From Clostridiales bacterium (lineage in GTDB: Bacteria; Bacillota; Clostridia; Oscillospirales; Oscillospiraceae): a DNA stretch of 38,065 nt. Within the stretch, counting starts at the first letter, position 1. Every line of letters begins with the position of its first letter. A model generated the notes under the pieces. It saw only the letters and a list, made by a program, of their open reading frames with translations. It was not told where the DNA came from and made no database searches. Below are positions 235-35,327 of the stretch, in pieces. The stretch covers positions 136,992 to 175,056 of the forward strand of contig JAAVHX010000008.1 in NCBI GenBank assembly GCA_014799475.1, given 5' to 3'. A program made the translations under genes and the position numbers.

Positions 235-382
235 GATCACCGCTTCTCAGCGTCCTTCGTTGTCGCGCTTTGAAGCGGCCAGGGCGCTCGGTCGCTTTCC
301 CTCCGACTCGGCCTGGTCTTGGGCGGCTCTGCCGCCCCGCGCTCGGCCTCGCTCCAGTCCAAGCTTCCTCGCTGTCCGCTTC
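235..382 (-). repeat. Post-stop interspersed repeat, copy A
   Basis: First of four related copies. In the direction of the ATPase gene it begins at the stop codon and contains, in order, GGACTGGAGCGAGG, a G+C-rich inverted repeat (GGGGCGGC..GCCGCCC), and AGACCAG-CCGAGTCGGAG-GGAA. The same blocks recur at 23140, 28035 and 35209. A 13-bp direct repeat CCGCTTCTCAGCG occurs at 240-252 and 376-388, at the two ends of this copy; the right one covers the ATPase stop. No reading frame with a ribosome site fits the element. Confidence 0.75.
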
Positions 383-3019
383 TCAGCGCTTCGCCCGCCG
401 CACCGCTTTTTCCACCTCGCACACCACCAGCGGCGTGAGGGACAGGGCCAGCACCACCAGCCACTCCATTGCGTTCAGATTGCAGACCTGGAACACCGCC
501 TGGAGCGGGGGGATGAGCAGCACAGAGAGCTGAAGTACCATGCCCACCAGGAAGGCTTTGTTCATGGCCGGGTTGGACAGCAGGCCGATGTGGGCGATGG
601 ACTGGGTCTCGCTGCGCACGTCGTAGGCGTGGAAGAGCTGGCAGAAGGTGAGGGTGGCGAAGGCCATGGTGTTGGCGGTGGCCGCCGCCAGAGTGGGGTC
701 GCTGAGGACATACTCCCCCAGCCAGTAGGCCGCCAGCGTCAGCAGGCCCACCATGGCCCCCTGCCAGGCCAGACGGATGGAAAAGCGTTTGGTGAACAGC
801 GGCTCCGAGGCGGCTCGGGGTTTTTCCTCCATCACCGAGGGCTCCACCGGCTCCATGCCCAGGGCCAGGGCGGGGAGGGAGTCGGTGACCAGGTTCAGCC
901 ACAAAAGCTGCACCGCCACCAGGGGGGGCTGGTGGAAGTTGAACAGGGTGGCGAGGAATAGGGTGACGATCTCGCCGATGTTGCAGGAGAGCAGGTAGTG
1001 GATGGCCTTTTTGATGTTGGAGTAGATGCCCCGGCCCTGCTCCACCGCCTTGACGATGGTGGCGAAGTTGTCATCGGTGAGGATCATGTCCGCCGCGCCC
1101 TTGGCCACGTCGGTGCCGGTGATGCCCATGGCGCAGCCGATGTCCGCCACCTTCAGGGCGGGGGCGTCGTTGACCCCGTCCCCGGTCATGGCCACCACCA
1201 TGCCCTTCTTCTGCCACGCCTTGACGATGCGCATTTTGTGCTCGGGGGAGACCCGGGCGTAGACCGCAAACTTGTCCACGTCCTGCTCCAGCAGCTCCTG
1301 GGGCATGAAGTCCAGGTCCTCGCCGGTGATGGCCAGGTCGCCGGGGCGGAAGATGTCCAGCTCCTTTGCAATCGCCACGGCGGTGAGCTTGTGGTCGCCG
1401 GTGATCATCACCGGGCGGATGCCCGCCCCATAGCACTGGGCCACCGCGTCCTTGACTTCCATCCGGGGCGGGTCGATCATGCCCACCAGGCCCACAAAGG
1501 TGAGGCCGGTCTCCAATTCCTCGCTGGTAGGGTTGCGGTCGGATAATTTTTCGATGTCTTTATACCCACAGGCGAGGACGCGGAGGGCCTGCTCTGCCAT
1601 GGAGCCGTTGGCGGCCTCCACGTCCCGGGTCAGGGCGGCGGTGAGGGGGACCGGGGAGCCGGCCAAAATGTGGGTGCTCCGGGAGAGCAGCACGTCGGGA
1701 GCGCCCTTTACCATGACCCGGTACTTCCCGGATTTGCCGCTTAAGGGGTGGACGGTGCTCATCAGCTTGCGGTCGGAGTCAAAGGGCAGCTCGGACACCC
1801 GGGGGAACTCCCGCTCCATCATGTTCTTGTCCAGGCCGTCCAAGAGGGCGGCGTCCACAAAGGCGGTCTCGGTGGGGTCGCCGGTGGTTTTCGGCTTGCC
1901 GTCCCCGCCCACCGCCAGCACCGTGTCATTGCACAGCGCCCCGATGGTCAGCGCTTCCTTCCGGTGGCGGTCGCCGGAGGTCCACACCTGCGTCACCGTC
2001 ATGCGGTTCTGGGTGAGGGTGCCCGTTTTGTCCGAGCAGATCACCCCGGCGCAGCCCAGCGTCTCTACCGCGGGCAGCTTTTTCACGATGGCGTTGTGGC
2101 GCACCATGCGCTGTACCCCCAGGGCCAGCACGATGGTGACGATGGCGGGCAGACCCTCCGGGATGGCGGCCACCGCCAGCGACACCGCCGCCATGAGCAT
2201 TTCCAGGATGGGGCGGTGGTAGAGCAGGCCTACGCCGAACATCACCGCGCACACGGCGAGGCAGACGAAGGACAGGGTTTTTGAAATTTCCGCCAGCTTG
2301 CGCTGGAGGGGGGTGGAGGCGTCCTCCTCCCCCATGAGCATACCGGCGATGCGGCCCACCTCGGTGTCCATGCCGGTGGCGGTGACCACGCAGACGGCCC
2401 GGCCGTTGGTGATGACGGTGGACGAGATCACCATGTTGCTGCGGTCGCCCAGGACGGTCTCCGGGGGCAGCACCTCGTCCGCCTGCTTGTTCACCGGGAC
2501 GGATTCGCCCGTCATGGCGGATTCATCCGCCTTCAAATTGGCGCACTCCAAAATGCGGGCGTCGGCGGGGACTAAATCGCCCGCCTCCAGCACGATGATG
2601 TCGCCGGGGACCAGGGCGTCCGTCTCCAGCCGGATCTGCTGCCCGCCCCGGATCACCTTGGCAAGAGGGGCGGACATCTTCTGCAATGCCTCCAGCGCTT
2701 TTTCCGCGCTGTCCTCCTGGGAGATGGAGATGCAGGCGTTTACCACCACGATGACCAGGATGATGAGGGCCTCGATCCAGTCCTCCCCGCCGGAGGACAC
2801 CAGCGACAGCGCCGCCGCGGCCAGCAGGACGAGGATCATGGGGTCCTTCATCTGCCCGAAAAAGCGGGCGGCCAGGGATTGCTTTTTCGCCCCGGCCAGC
2901 TTGTTGGGGCCGTGCTTCTCCAGCCGCTCCTCCCCCTGGCGGGGGGTGAGGCCGGAACTCTGGCTGGTGTCCAGCTCGTGGAGAACCTGGGCGGCGGGTT
3001 TGGCGTACCATTGGCTCAT
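383..3019 (-). CDS. P-type (P2) cation-translocating ATPase, calcium type
   Basis: This 878-residue membrane pump uses ATP to move a cation, most likely Ca2+, out of the cell. The order is typical of P2 ATPases: an N-terminal cation-ATPase domain, TM1-2 (about 55-100), an actuator domain with the TGES loop (about 170), a PEGLPA motif in TM4 (about 288), the phosphorylated Asp330 in CSDKTGTLT, the hinge GDGVND, and a C-terminal set of transmembrane segments ending in charged residues. The PEGLPA ion-site motif favours Ca2+ over Na+/K+ or Mn2+, but the ion is an inference. The ATG at 3019 has AAGGAG about 10 bases upstream. The gene stands alone; its stop codon abuts repeat copy A. Confidence 0.92.
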   Translation of the reverse strand: MSQWYAKPAAQVLHELDTSQSSGLTPRQGEERLEKHGPNKLAGAKKQSLAARFFGQMKDPMILVLLAAAALSLVSSGGEDWIEALIILVIVVVNACISISQEDSAEKALEALQKMSAPLAKVIRGGQQIRLETDALVPGDIIVLEAGDLVPADARILECANLKADESAMTGESVPVNKQADEVLPPETVLGDRSNMVISSTVITNGRAVCVVTATGMDTEVGRIAGMLMGEEDASTPLQRKLAEISKTLSFVCLAVCAVMFGVGLLYHRPILEMLMAAVSLAVAAIPEGLPAIVTIVLALGVQRMVRHNAIVKKLPAVETLGCAGVICSDKTGTLTQNRMTVTQVWTSGDRHRKEALTIGALCNDTVLAVGGDGKPKTTGDPTETAFVDAALLDGLDKNMMEREFPRVSELPFDSDRKLMSTVHPLSGKSGKYRVMVKGAPDVLLSRSTHILAGSPVPLTAALTRDVEAANGSMAEQALRVLACGYKDIEKLSDRNPTSEELETGLTFVGLVGMIDPPRMEVKDAVAQCYGAGIRPVMITGDHKLTAVAIAKELDIFRPGDLAITGEDLDFMPQELLEQDVDKFAVYARVSPEHKMRIVKAWQKKGMVVAMTGDGVNDAPALKVADIGCAMGITGTDVAKGAADMILTDDNFATIVKAVEQGRGIYSNIKKAIHYLLSCNIGEIVTLFLATLFNFHQPPLVAVQLLWLNLVTDSLPALALGMEPVEPSVMEEKPRAASEPLFTKRFSIRLAWQGAMVGLLTLAAYWLGEYVLSDPTLAAATANTMAFATLTFCQLFHAYDVRSETQSIAHIGLLSNPAMNKAFLVGMVLQLSVLLIPPLQAVFQVCNLNAMEWLVVLALSLTPLVVCEVEKAVRRAKR

Positions 3020-17600: not shown

Positions 17601-17652
17601 AAGCGAGAGAAACGACAATGGCCCGGCGGGCTTGCGCCCGCTTTGTCGAATA

Positions 17653-17749
17653 CACTTCCTACGCCGGCATTACCCGGATCAGGTTCGAGGGACCGGGGGC
17701 TGCAATTCGCCCCGCATCTCAGCCGGGAATGACTCCCGGCGCCCCTGTG
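17653..17749 (-). ncRNA. TPP riboswitch (THI element)
   Basis: Read on the minus strand, the two conserved TPP-binding blocks are intact: GGCTGAGATG (about 17724-17715) and GAACCTGATCCGGGTAATGC followed by CGGCGTAGGAAGTG (about 17687-17653). A CAC/GTG P1 closing stem and a P3-like stem (GGGGC..GCCCC) are visible. It lies between a perfect promoter (17777-17805) and thiT, so it should switch off thiT and the HAD gene when thiamine pyrophosphate is plentiful. Confidence 0.97.
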
Positions 17750-17776
17750 CTATTCCATTCACGCTGCGGTGTCCCT

Positions 17777-23139: not shown

Positions 23140-23276
23140 CCGGGCCTTGTCACGCTCGGATTGGCCGCGCTCTTCCCGGCGGCTTCCCTCCGACTCGGAC
23201 TGGTCTCTGGGGCTGTTAGCCCCATCGCTCGTCCTCGCTCCGGTTCATCCGCCGGGGCGCGGCTATCCTCACGCTT
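23140..23276 (-). repeat. Post-stop interspersed repeat, copy B
   Basis: In the direction of mreC it starts right at the mreC stop (TAG then AAGCGTGAGGATAGCC) and ends near CGAGCGTGACAAGG. The middle has GGAGCGAGGACGAGCG, the hairpin TGGGGCTAACAGCCCCA, and GACCAGTCCGAGTCGGAG. All blocks match copies A, C and D. Confidence 0.8.
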
Positions 23277-24107
23277 CTATTCTCCATAATCCACGATCAC
23301 ATAAACATTCTGCACGCCGGCGATGTCCGCCGCCGGCTCCACCTGGGCGTAACGGCTGACGCCGTCCTCCTCCACGTCCAGGGTGCGCACCGAGCCCACC
23401 AGTAACCCCGGGGGATAGACGCCGCCCAGGCCGGAGGTGGTGATCTGGTCGCCGGTGACCAGCTTGGCCTCCTCGGGCAGGAAGGACAGCCGGAGCAGGC
23501 CGTTCAGCATGAGGGCGAAGTCCCCCTCCAAAATGGCGTCCTCGTCGGTGCGGGCCACCCGCCCCCCCAGCTCCAGGGTGGGATCTAAAATGGTGGTGAC
23601 CACCGAGGAATTGGGATTGGCCTCGGTGACCACGCCCACAAGGTAGCCGTATTGGTCGATGACGCAGTCGTTGACCTCCACGCCCCCTAAAGTCCCCCGG
23701 TCGATGGTCAGGTTGGAGGCCCAGTTGGAGGCGGAACGGCGCACCACCGCCGCGTCCCGGTACTGGAGCTCGGGCCGGGCCTCATGGAGGCCCAGCAGAT
23801 CCTTCATGCGCTCGTTCTCCCGCACCGCGTCCTGCCCGGCGATGGCGTCACGCTCCAGCTCCGCCACCCGCTGGCGCAGAGCCTCGTTTTCCGCCGCCAG
23901 CTCCTCATAGCGGAACGCCTTGTCGTATTGGGCCTGAGTCCAGTTGGTCACCGCGCTGGACGCCGCCCGGAAGGGGGTGGCCAGCACCTCCAGCACGTTG
24001 GTGAGGGGGTTGAAGCCCAGGATCTGCGCCCCCAGGGCCAGCACCGCCGCCAGCAGCACCGCCGCCACCAGCAGCAGCCCGCCGTTGTTTCGGAAAAATT
24101 GCTTCAT
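23277..24107 (-). CDS. mreC: Rod shape-determining protein MreC
   Basis: A 276-residue protein: a short cytoplasmic start (MKQFFRNN), one transmembrane helix (about 9-30), a coiled coil (about 65-105, ELAAENEALRQRVAELERD), and the beta-barrel domain with VIDQYGYLVGVV and the C-terminal GLLVG-V. MreC links the MreB cytoskeleton to cell-wall synthesis outside the membrane. The start is the downstream of two duplicated start regions (see 24093-24200). Neither mreB nor mreD is adjacent: maf lies upstream and mutS downstream. Confidence 0.94.
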   Translation of the reverse strand: MKQFFRNNGGLLLVAAVLLAAVLALGAQILGFNPLTNVLEVLATPFRAASSAVTNWTQAQYDKAFRYEELAAENEALRQRVAELERDAIAGQDAVRENERMKDLLGLHEARPELQYRDAAVVRRSASNWASNLTIDRGTLGGVEVNDCVIDQYGYLVGVVTEANPNSSVVTTILDPTLELGGRVARTDEDAILEGDFALMLNGLLRLSFLPEEAKLVTGDQITTSGLGGVYPPGLLVGSVRTLDVEEDGVSRYAQVEPAADIAGVQNVYVIVDYGE

Positions 24108-28034: not shown

Positions 28035-28179
28035 TTATCGTTGCGCTACCGCTTCTCACGCTCCGATTGGCCGCGCGGCCGGGTCGCTTTCGCTCCGACT
28101 CGGGCTGGTCTTTGGGGCCGTAGGCCCCATCGCTCGCCCTCGCTCCGTTCCAAGCTCCCCTGCGCGGCTATCGTCGCGC
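28035..28179 (-). repeat. Post-stop interspersed repeat, copy C
   Basis: In zapA direction it begins directly at the TAA stop (GCGCGACGATAGCCGCGC). It contains GGAGCGAGGGCGAGCG, the hairpin TGGGGCCTACGGCCCCA, GACCAGCCCGAGTCGGAGCG, then CGCGCGGCCAATCGGAGCGTGAG. This is the cleanest copy. TTATCG occurs at 28035-28040 and 28180-28185, at the two ends. Confidence 0.82.
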
Positions 28180-28494
28180 TTATCGCTTTTGCTGCAATTT
28201 AAAAATCTCCCGCTTCGACTCGCTCAGCTCCAGCTTCAGCTTGGAGTTCTCCTCCAACAGATCCTTGATCTGGCGGCGCAGGTTCTCCGACGACTCCTGC
28301 TCCTTGAAGCGGTCGTCGGCGATGTTGATGGCGGTGAGGATGGCGCAGTCCATCTGGGACACGCCGCCGGCCTTGCCGGTCTCCCTCAGCTTGTCGTTGA
28401 CATAGGCCGCCACCCGGTGGACATAGTTTTCATCCTCCGCACACAGCAGCGTGTATTTCAACCCACCCACGGTCACGGTGACGCGGTTTTGCAT
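28180..28494 (-). CDS. zapA: Cell division protein ZapA
   Basis: A 104-residue FtsZ-ring stabiliser. The N-terminal globular part has NRVTVTVGGLKYTLLCAEDENYVHRVAAYVNDKL, typical of ZapA, and the second half is a coiled coil (about 60-104, LRRQIKDLLEENSKLKLELSES). The start at 28494 is chosen because GGAGGGG lies 6 bases upstream. It is first in a unit with the U32 gene, and an extended -10 box lies at 28526-28531. Confidence 0.93.
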   Translation of the reverse strand: MQNRVTVTVGGLKYTLLCAEDENYVHRVAAYVNDKLRETGKAGGVSQMDCAILTAINIADDRFKEQESSENLRRQIKDLLEENSKLKLELSESKREIFKLQQKR

Positions 28495-28525
28495 GGCGCT
28501 CCCCTCCTGCATAATGATTCAGATT

Positions 28526-33924: not shown

Positions 33925-35208
33925 ATGGCCAATCAATTCATTGACACCGCCCGCATCACCGTCCGGGCGGGCACGGGCGGCGGCGGCGCGGTGGCCTTCC
34001 ACCGGGAGAAGTACGTGGCCGCCGGCGGCCCTGACGGCGGCGACGGCGGGCGCGGCGGGGACATCATCCTGCGGGTGGACCCCCATATGTCCACCCTGAT
34101 GGACTTCCGCTACAAGCGCAAATACACCGCCGAAAACGGCAAGGACGGCCAGGGCAAGCGCTGCTCCGGCAAGGACGGCAGCGATCTGGTGATCCGGGTG
34201 CCCCGGGGCACGGTGGTGCGGGATCTGGAAACCCGGGAGATCATCTGCGATATGTCCGGCGAGGAGGACTTCGTGCTGGCCCGGGGCGGCAACGGCGGCT
34301 GGGGCAACCAGCACTTCGCCACCCCCACCCGGCAGGTGCCCCGGTTCGCCAAGGCGGGCCTGCCCGGCCAGTACCGGGAGGTCATTTTGGAGCTGAAGCT
34401 GCTGGCCGACGTGGGGCTGGTGGGCTTCCCCAACGTGGGCAAGTCCACCCTGCTCAGCGTGGTGACCAGGGCCCAGCCCAAAATCGCCAACTACCACTTC
34501 ACCACCCTCTCCCCCAACCTGGGCGTGGTGCCGGTGGACGGGGGGGAGTCCTTCGTGCTGGCGGACATCCCCGGCATCATCGAGGGCGCCGCCGACGGCG
34601 CGGGGCTGGGCCACGACTTTTTGCGCCATGTGGATCGCTGCCGGCTGCTGATCCACGTGGTGGATGTGTCCGGCTCCGAGGGGCGCGACCCGGTGGAGGA
34701 TTTTGACGCCATCTGTGAGGAGCTTCAGCGCTGGTCCCCCGAGCTGGCCTCCAGGCGGATGCTGGTGGCGGCCAACAAGGTGGACATTATGGAGGATCCC
34801 GAGCTTTTGGCAAAGCTGCGGGCCCATGTGGAGGCCAAGGGCTGCCCCCTGTTCGAGCTGTCCGCCGCCACCCACCGGGGCACAAAAGAGCTGATGTACG
34901 CCGCGGCGGCGGAGCTGTCCACCCTGCCCCCGGTCATCGTGTATGAGCCAACCTATGTGGAGCGGCCCCCTGAAGTGGACACCTCCGAGGCGCTGGACAT
35001 CCAGCGGGACGAGGACGGCACCTGGCTGGTGGACGGGCCTTGGCTGCGCCAGCTCATGGCAAACGTCAACTTCTCCGACTACGAGAGCCGCAACTGGTTC
35101 GAGCGGCGGCTCCGGGACGCGGGAGTGTATCAGCAGCTGGAGGACCTGGGCGTCCAGGATGGGGACGTGGTGTGCCTGTACAATTTGGAATTTGAATACC
35201 AGCGCTGA
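33925..35208 (+). CDS. obg: Obg-family GTPase ObgE/CgtA
   Basis: A 427-residue ribosome-assembly and stress GTPase. The glycine-rich Obg fold covers 1-158 (IDTARITVRAGTGGGGAV..GGPDGGDGGRGGDI). The G domain has G1 GFPNVGKST (about 166-174), G2-G3 with DIPGIIEGA, G4 NKVD and G5 SAA. A C-terminal OCT domain (about 350-427) ends in GDVVCLYNLEFEYQ. AGAAGGAGG precedes the ATG. In most Firmicutes it follows rpmA directly; here the orphan gene at 33310 intervenes. Repeat copy D begins at its stop codon. Confidence 0.98.
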   Translation: MANQFIDTARITVRAGTGGGGAVAFHREKYVAAGGPDGGDGGRGGDIILRVDPHMSTLMDFRYKRKYTAENGKDGQGKRCSGKDGSDLVIRVPRGTVVRDLETREIICDMSGEEDFVLARGGNGGWGNQHFATPTRQVPRFAKAGLPGQYREVILELKLLADVGLVGFPNVGKSTLLSVVTRAQPKIANYHFTTLSPNLGVVPVDGGESFVLADIPGIIEGAADGAGLGHDFLRHVDRCRLLIHVVDVSGSEGRDPVEDFDAICEELQRWSPELASRRMLVAANKVDIMEDPELLAKLRAHVEAKGCPLFELSAATHRGTKELMYAAAAELSTLPPVIVYEPTYVERPPEVDTSEALDIQRDEDGTWLVDGPWLRQLMANVNFSDYESRNWFERRLRDAGVYQQLEDLGVQDGDVVCLYNLEFEYQR

Positions 35209-35327
35209 GCCGTCGTGAGCAGTGCGGATGGACTGGAGCGAGGGCGAGCGGAGGGACGCACAGCGGCCCGCAGACCAGCCCGAGTCGGAAGGAAGCCGCG
35301 CGTCGCGAACAGGCGAAGCGTGACGAC
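35209..35327 (+). repeat. Post-stop interspersed repeat, copy D
   Basis: It begins directly after the obg TGA. It contains GGACTGGAGCGAGGGCGAGCGG, a less perfect GGGACG..CGGCCC core, GACCAGCCCGAGTCGGAAGGAAGC, and ends with GAAGCGTGACGACAGG. It lies on the opposite strand to copies A-C, but so does the gene it follows, so orientation relative to the gene is the same. Confidence 0.8.

What the first reader, a model, noticed from the sequence alone, without database searches (positions are those of the whole stretch)
28035..28179. A four-copy repeat that always begins at a stop codon, in the same orientation to the gene
Copies at 235-382, 23140-23276, 28035-28179 and 35209-35327 share the blocks GGAGCGAGG-CGAGCG, a central hairpin, and GACCAG-CCGAGTCGGA. 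The genes they follow (P-type ATPase, mreC, zapA, obg) are unrelated, yet each copy begins within 0-3 bases of the stop, and always in the same sense relative to that gene. Three are read from the minus strand and one from the plus strand, so this is not a chromosomal strand bias. The stem in the central hairpin is kept while its bases change (GGGGCGGC/GCCGCC, TGGGGCT/AGCCCCA, TGGGGCC/GGCCCCA). In two cases (mreC-mutS, zapA-U32) the next gene is on the same strand, so the element may be read as an mRNA part between genes. I know of no named family with this behaviour; it might be a 3'-UTR stability or termination element, or a mobile repeat that targets gene ends.
Basis: seen in the sequence. 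Interest (0 to 1): 0.72.

Follow-up and report, generated by a model that had tools for sequence, protein, structure and literature searches.

The report
Mobile hairpin repeats at gene ends
This is a family of about 130-base hairpin-forming repeats, scattered through one bacterial family, that mostly sit at the stop codons of unrelated genes and point the same way as the gene; they behave like small mobile elements, and how they come to lie at gene ends is unknown.

Summary
The four copies belong to one family (window 260-392 -, 23147-23277 -, 28053-28182 -, 35199-35326 +). The own draft genome has 34 matches; 33 of 42 genus genomes and 38 of 300 family genomes (15 of 106 genera) have some.

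The sense strand folds into one long imperfect hairpin; 28 of 36 pairs show changes on both sides.

The gene-end rule is strong but not absolute. In the genus, 60 of 92 first-or-solitary copies start at a same-sense stop codon; 57 lie between two co-directional genes, 5 between two antisense genes, and 49 of the 57 start no more than 4 nt past the stop or overlap it. In other genera, without one deviant genome (G214, 2 of 14 at a stop), 26 of 35 start at a stop.

It behaves as a mobile element: absent or decayed at the same sites in relatives, in head-to-tail arrays with mostly 4-nt spacers, of different subtype at the same gene. It resembles REP and ERIC repeats but failed defining tests of both. 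No Rfam match; no enzyme found. A terminator role is not supported; a stability role is open but not needed.

The parts
260..392 (-). Element copy 1, subtype B arms; its left end GAAGCGCTGA contains the stop codon of the P-type ATPase gene
   Evidence: R1 match 124.7 bits; relative G005 shares it, G032 lacks it and has a different gene end
240..258 (-). Fragment resembling the left end of another element, just after copy 1
   Evidence: Read; called by eye
383..3019 (-). Host gene of copy 1: calcium-type P-type ATPase
   Evidence: NCBIfam: above the cut-off of TIGR01517 and TIGR01494, below that of the best-scoring TIGR01522
23147..23277 (-). Element copy 2, between mreC and mutS; overlaps the mreC stop codon by 1 nt
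   Evidence: R1 match 112.3 bits; shared with G005; G064 and G032 have a GC-rich hairpin there instead
23277..24107 (-). Host gene of copy 2: mreC
   Evidence: NCBIfam TIGR00219 above cut-off
28053..28182 (-). Element copy 3 (the finding), between zapA and a U32/TrhP-like gene; its first 3 nt are the zapA stop codon
   Evidence: R1 match 106.5 bits; absent in G005, G064 and G032; other subtypes or remnants at the same gene in further species
28180..28512 (-). Host gene of copy 3: zapA-like
   Evidence: NCBIfam NF010724, E 6e-13, below cut-off
35199..35326 (+). Element copy 4, after obg, subtype C arms; contains the obg stop codon at 35206-35208
   Evidence: R1 match 102.2 bits, not in the model's alignment; absent in G064, G005 and G032
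33925..35208 (+). Host gene of copy 4: obg
   Evidence: NCBIfam TIGR02729 and NF008955 above cut-off

Best explanation
A lineage-specific family of non-autonomous mobile hairpin repeats, mostly 127-137 bp, that works like ERIC/REP/MITE repeats. Shown: dispersed copies; a conserved single long hairpin on the sense strand with compensatory changes; a left end (GAAGCG) that lies at the end of a gene or other functional unit in most copies, nearly always in the direction of transcription; presence/absence differences at the same site between close relatives; head-to-tail arrays. Inferred: new copies enter from elsewhere with their left end at a gene end, or at the left end of a resident copy, duplicating or carrying about 4 nt; once in place they drift and are lost by internal deletion. 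Inferred effect: the transcribed hairpin sits at the mRNA 3' end or between two genes of an operon and may alter decay or downstream expression, as reported for ERIC. The mobilising enzyme, and whether the folded intermediate is DNA or RNA, are unknown.
For: Copies: 34 in the own genome and at least 120 in G013; 33 of 42 genus genomes; 38 of 300 family genomes in 15 of 106 genera (11 candidates scored per genome). Absent sites: zapA and obg copies are missing in three close relatives, the ATPase copy in one of the two with that region; deletion remnants, by eye, at mreC, zapA and obg in others. Same gene, different subtype: 13 of 70 host-gene clusters hold more than one copy; apart from near-identical orthologues (0.89-0.99), same-gene pairs are 0.62-0.83 identical, random pairs 0.71 on average (some of these loci were fetched because they lie at zapA or mreC). 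Arrays: in 68 of 131 copies a GAAGCG-like hexamer follows within 6 nt, 51 of them exactly 4 nt on; the 4 nt on either side are identical in 17 of 68 against 1.7 expected. Position where at least 60 nt of room exist: 26 of 34 start no more than 4 nt past the stop in the genus (1.2 expected), 12 of 14 in named loci (0.8), 18 of 21 new loci of other genera without G214 (0.9). Orientation ++ to --: 57 to 5, 27 to 2, 27 to 4 in the same sets. Fold. The stop codon lies at least 9 nt inside the element in 28 of 90 stop-adjacent copies of the first set and 3 of 29 of the second. One copy lies on a viral contig.
Against: No enzyme is linked to it: the three families searched give no match that follows copy number. 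Solitary copies show no significant target duplication (63 copies). Comparisons with relatives are rarely clean: flanks differ, and some differences could be deletions or recombination; at mreC two relatives carry another hairpin. Arrays could also arise by recombination. The orientation rule is not explained by ordinary random transposition. In G214 only 2 of 14 copies lie at a stop, and 32 of 92 genus copies do not.
Confidence: 0.68

Rival explanations
1. A host-adapted cis-acting RNA element: the hairpin is kept at mRNA 3' ends or between genes because it stabilises, processes or uncouples transcripts.
For: Sense orientation; sense-strand RNA fold more stable than antisense in 55 of 57 copies and G-U cells outnumber A-C cells 79 to 46, one constant G-U column left out; pairs kept through change; the same gene is occupied in several species.
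Against: Copies are missing or decayed at the same site in close relatives. In 8 same-site pairs, 12 changed base pairs broke, 8 were kept by a one-side change and 4 changed on both sides, which is no clear constraint (small and not independent). Some copies lie just after terminator-like sites, a tRNA or an SRP RNA, or near promoter-like sites.
Confidence: 0.14
2. A retro-type element: its RNA is copied and joined to the 3' ends of other RNAs (template jumping), so copies land after stop codons, terminators and tRNAs in the same sense.
For: The left end abuts gene or RNA ends, with one base between a tRNA-Gln and a copy; 19 of 230 rows have a T-rich run within 15 nt before the element, 4 of 230 within 12 nt after it (the two stretches differ in length); the sense strand is the better folder.
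Against: RVT_1 is found in 11 of the 17 genus genomes with 15 or more matches, but not in G013, which has the most, nor in G032, G018, G020, G031 or G034 (drafts of 71-96% completeness, so absence is not certain). Stop codons are not known to be mRNA 3' ends. Several copies lie near promoter-like sites.
Confidence: 0.08
3. A folded single-strand DNA site recombined by a tyrosine recombinase, in the manner of integron attC sites (long imperfect palindromes after gene ends, same orientation, arrays).
For: Length, palindrome with conserved mismatches and variable arms, orientation, arrays with mostly fixed spacing.
Against: attC boxes RYYYAAC and GTTRRRY (recalled) in 0 of 230 rows, either strand. 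Integron integrase above cut-off in 0 of 42 genus genomes, though weaker matches, as expected of any tyrosine recombinase, occur in all 42 and in all 14 controls. Sites are dispersed among housekeeping genes, not in one platform.
Confidence: 0.07
4. No special targeting: random insertion, with selection removing copies that harm genes, in gene-dense genomes.
For: Other repeats in these loci also sit at gene ends in some cases, but too few independent copies were found to judge.
Against: In gaps with 60 nt or more of room, 26 of 34 genus copies still start no more than 4 nt past the stop, against 1.2 expected from uniform placement that spares the last 20 nt.
Confidence: 0.1

Closest known systems
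ERIC (enterobacterial repetitive intergenic consensus)
   Same: About 127 bp (recalled), one long stem-loop (PMC2267715, passages), intergenic, reported at 3' ends of Yersinia genes with an effect on mRNA decay (PMC10969869, passages), non-autonomous.
   Different: No sequence match of one tested copy in 20,395 E. coli records, which carry ERIC (recalled); far removed host group; arms vary freely while pairing is kept; nearly fixed orientation; head-to-tail arrays.
REP / GTAG-tagged palindromes with RAYT transposases
   Same: Lie next to the 3' ends of upstream ORFs and can provide their stop codon (PMC3733652, passages).
   Different: 20-40 bp there, about 130 bp here; no GTAG or CGTC end in the alignment consensus; Y1 transposase family found in 2 of the 17 genus genomes with 15 or more matches and in 7 of the 9 without any.
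MITEs such as bcr1, RUP, NEMIS, Nezha, EFAR (named in PMC3733652, passages)
   Same: Short, dispersed, no enzyme of their own.
   Different: No conserved terminal inverted-repeat sequence: ends GAAGCG and GTGACAA are not inverted copies of each other; sign of target duplication only in arrays and one doublet.
Integron attC sites (for example Vibrio repeats; recalled)
   Same: Long imperfect palindrome after a gene, same orientation, arrays.
   Different: attC boxes and integron integrase not found.

Membership tests
REP/RAYT | Short palindrome (20-40 bp) ending in GTAG or CGTC | tested here: not met
   57-copy alignment: ends GAAGCG and GTGACAA, about 130 nt
REP/RAYT | Y1 (RAYT-like) transposase in the same genome | tested here: not met
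   PF01797 in 16 of 42 genus genomes; none in the window's genome; 2 of 17 copy-rich genomes; drafts
ERIC | Sequence similarity to ERIC copies | tested here: not met
   No match of one copy (L012) in the E. coli collection at E 0.01
ERIC | About 127-bp single long stem-loop between genes | tested here: met
   Median length 132; fold
MITE (general) | Conserved terminal inverted repeats recognised by a transposase | tested here: not met
   Arms pair within each copy but differ between subtypes; only short ends are conserved and they are not inverted copies
MITE (general) | Target-site duplication | tested here: inconclusive
   Equal 4-nt flanks in 17 of 68 array-type junctions, 1.7 expected; none significant in 63 solitary copies; a doublet (L016) is flanked by TAAA on both sides
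MITE (general) | No coding capacity | tested here: inconclusive
   No open frame in 64 of 230 rows, one in 129, two in 37; no protein conservation test was made
Integron attC | R'' and R' boxes; integron integrase | tested here: not met
   0 of 230 rows; 0 of 42 genomes over the integrase cut-off
Intrinsic terminator | Hairpin followed by a T-run | tested here: not met
   T-rich run after 4 of 230 rows
Rfam RNA families | Score at or above gathering | tested here: not met
   Window: only a TPP riboswitch elsewhere. Eight element loci at E up to 5: an ncS011 match overlapping one copy in L016 at 21.7 bits (gathering 48, E 0.08) and an L10-leader match overlapping one copy by 5 nt in L036 (41.9 bits, gathering 44); the one match above gathering is an SRP RNA beside the copy of L026

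The most novel reading that the evidence does not exclude
A mobile element with a new kind of target: it recognises the 3' ends of genes or transcripts, with its left end abutting stop codons, terminator T-runs, tRNA and SRP RNA ends, or its own kin, and is inserted in the sense direction through a folded sense-strand intermediate, by an enzyme that is none of the known Y1, integron or reverse-transcriptase systems.
Probability: 0.22. Interest if true: 0.8.

Novelty: new variant of a known kind. Interest (0 to 1): 0.5.

Why it matters
Repeats that sit at gene ends are known, but here orientation and left boundary are nearly fixed, the pattern recurs in other genera, and the fold is kept while most stem positions change (28 of 36 pairs). 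That makes a testable case for how small repeats come to lie at gene ends: by an enzyme, by RNA, or by selection. The elements also rewrite protein C-termini and stop codons: in 28 of 90 stop-adjacent copies of the first set the stop lies at least 9 nt inside the element.

Tried and rejected
RT-driven retro-element: RVT_1 not found in several copy-rich genomes, kept only as a rival. REP/RAYT: Y1 family distribution is nearly opposite. Integron attC: boxes and integrase not found. Terminator: no T-run. Known RNA family: none at gathering level over an element. Phage or plasmid passenger: no match of one copy in 50,697 phage or 72,556 plasmid records; one stretch of viral contigs matched the exact core pattern. 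Control repeat families, to test whether the gene-end rule is general, gave 8, 8, 24 and 7 places, some of them the two strands of one palindrome or one site in several species: too few to judge. Ordinary target duplication at solitary copies: not found. Nine literature searches listed no description of this family; I read only listings and passages of PMC2267715, PMC3733652 and PMC10969869, and most subscription journals are not held, so an earlier description is not excluded.

Rows dropped before counts: of 203 model matches (109, 94) 17 were left out of the context table, being cut off, fragments or split by a nested insert; the starts of L031 and L074 were moved by hand to before the nested insert; 186 entered gave 169 distinct, 133 of them first or solitary. 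Of 63 matches, 2 partial ones were left out. labels the first set 'genus', but its 50 named-collection rows come from mixed genera, and 10 of the 61 rows of the second set repeat named loci; one search separates the sets, and its numbers are the ones to use. The 230 rows hold 219 distinct copies. Genes in these loci were called with a simple codon-usage finder trained on the window, so single contexts can be wrong. Sampling is not uniform: some loci were fetched because they lie at zapA, mreC or obg; orthologous copies are counted apart; and the scans scored only 11 to 150 candidates per genome.

Full report
What is there. The four copies are real. A covariance model (R1) built from 57 copies, three of the four among them, places them at window 260-392 (-), 23147-23277 (-), 28053-28182 (-) and 35199-35326 (+). 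The host genes are a P-type ATPase, mreC, a zapA-like gene and obg. The window lies in a 2.08-Mb draft genome of 46 contigs. The exact core pattern occurs in 49 stretches of the named genome collection; the titles name uncultured Oscillospiraceae, Pseudoflavonifractor, Clostridiales, Ruminococcaceae or only 'bacterium'.

Anatomy. Length is 125-186 nt with a median of 132. The left end is GAAGCG and the right end GTGACAA. Between them the sense strand folds into one long hairpin of short helices separated by small, mostly purine internal loops. Across 57 copies, 28 of 36 pairs of the structure I named have changes on both sides, 89.9% of cells pair, and none of 500 shuffles reaches the observed covariation; slid controls pair in 26-41%. 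The structure was drawn partly from these sequences, so the slid control leans in its favour; a separate RNAalifold run gave 21 of 28 pairs with both-side changes. The sense strand folds better as RNA than the antisense in 55 of 57 copies, and G-U cells outnumber A-C cells 79 to 46 (25 of the 46 A-C cells lie in two columns where subtypes are poorly aligned). Subtypes differ in their arms. Some copies carry another inserted repeat (for example L002 and L031), and some have a different inner hairpin.

Where copies sit. Own genome: 34 matches at E 0.01 with 150 of 1424 candidates scored. Genus: 33 of 42 genomes, from 0 to 79 matches with 80 candidates scored each; G013 reaches 120 with 150 scored. 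Family: 38 of 300 genomes, 15 of 106 genera, at E 1e-5 with 11 candidates scored each. Context was tabulated for 169 distinct copies and, later, 61 rows from other genera, and the sets were separated. Genus genomes: 92 first-or-solitary copies, ++ 57, +- 15, -+ 6, -- 5, 9 with one gene unknown; 60 of 92 at a same-sense stop; 49 of 57 ++ copies start no more than 4 nt past the stop or overlap it; with at least 60 nt of room 26 of 34 against 1.2 expected. Named loci of mixed genera: 41 first-or-solitary, one of them inside a gene, ++ 27, +- 7, -+ 3, -- 2, one unknown; 25 of 27; with room 12 of 14 against 0.8. New loci of other genera without G214: 36, one inside a gene, ++ 27, -- 4, -+ 2, +- 1, one unknown; 24 of 27; with room 18 of 21 against 0.9; 26 of 35 at a stop. 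G214: ++ 2, +- 8, -- 4, 2 of 14 at a stop; most of its copies follow another repeat. In 28 of 90 stop-adjacent copies of the first set and 3 of 29 of the second the stop codon lies at least 9 nt inside the element, so the element gives the protein a new end.

Exceptions. 41 copies are listed with no same-sense stop close by. By eye, six of them directly follow a T-run of a terminator-like hairpin (L027, L032, L036, L185, L217, L218), and several lie within tens of bases of promoter-like sequences. L077 starts two positions after a tRNA-Gln end, one base between. L026 starts 15 positions after an SRP RNA match. So the left end tends to abut the end of a functional unit, not only a stop codon.

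Mobility. zapA and obg copies are absent from three close relatives (G005, G064, G032); the ATPase copy is in G005 and absent from G032; remnants with internal deletions occur, by eye, at mreC, zapA and obg in other species. At the obg site of G028 the element lies inside another repeat, just before a GAAGCG of that repeat. Arrays: of 131 copies with standard ends, 68 are followed within 6 nt by a GAAGCG-like hexamer, 51 of them exactly 4 nt on, and the 4 nt on either side are equal in 17 of 68 against 1.7 expected. A doublet in the own genome (L016) has TAAA on both outer sides. Solitary copies show no significant duplication. The zapA sites of G034 and G062 could show an insertion before an older fragment, but a deletion in G062 would give the same picture. 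Same host gene, different subtype in different species recurs; this could be repeated insertion or replacement by gene conversion.

Constraint at single sites. In 8 same-site pairs, 14 of 384 loop positions changed; among 340 pairs, 12 broke, 8 were kept by one-side change and 4 changed on both sides. This is small and not independent, and gives no clear sign of selection in place.

Enzyme. Of 17 genus genomes with 15 or more matches, RVT_1 is found in 11 and not in 6, among them G013; Y1 transposase is found in 2, against 7 of 9 genomes without the element. Integron integrase is over the cut-off in 0 of 42. These are drafts. The enzyme is unknown.

Compared with what is known. REP repeats also lie next to 3' ends and can provide the stop codon, and ERIC repeats are reported at 3' ends of genes with effects on mRNA decay (passages only). 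Thus the behaviour has precedents; the family fails a defining test of each (for ERIC by sequence; for REP). The nearly fixed orientation, the near-exact left boundary, the changing but pairing arms and the mostly 4-nt-spaced arrays are, together, what sets it apart.

Verdict. An ERIC/REP/MITE-like mobile hairpin repeat, new as a family as far as these searches show, with an unusually strict gene-end rule whose cause is open.

Noticed in passing
window 17639-17756 (-): TPP riboswitch above Rfam gathering score.
   Followed up: no
L002, L031, L039, L195, L196, L197: A second small repeat with two hairpins (CCGTTAGGC... / ...ACGG) is inserted inside copies of the element, apparently in both orientations (by eye).
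   Followed up: partly
L021, L023, L028, L064: A third repeat (GGCGCTGTGTGCCGGTGGCACACGTC... or a relative of it) is inserted inside copies at different points (by eye).
   Followed up: no
L200-L203, L206, L213-L215 (genome G013): Longer multi-hairpin units begin with the same kind of left end (GAAGCGCTGAGCC) but carry a different body (AAAAAAGTCCAAGGACTTTTTT...); they lie in the same arrays.
   Followed up: partly
L098, L101, L104, L105, L111: Another palindromic repeat (GGGCCTTACTTTTTCTTTGAAAAG...) also starts 0-6 nt after the obg stop in several relatives.
   Followed up: partly
mreC-mutS gap, L155, L156, L158, L170: Relatives without the element carry a GC-rich hairpin, followed at most by a short T stretch, between mreC and mutS; G000 and G005 carry the element there instead.
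   Followed up: no
L007, L008 (G000 contig C11) and viral contig L292: Copies follow genes that look like phage structural genes (by eye) and one lies on a viral contig, so phages may carry the element.
   Followed up: partly
L132, L135; L191: Copies follow a T-box-like sequence and a CIRCE-like palindrome (recognised from memory).
   Followed up: no
genome G214 (L256-L269): Most copies of this genome follow another repeat ending in GCCTGGCAAAAAATACAG and do not lie at stop codons.
   Followed up: partly
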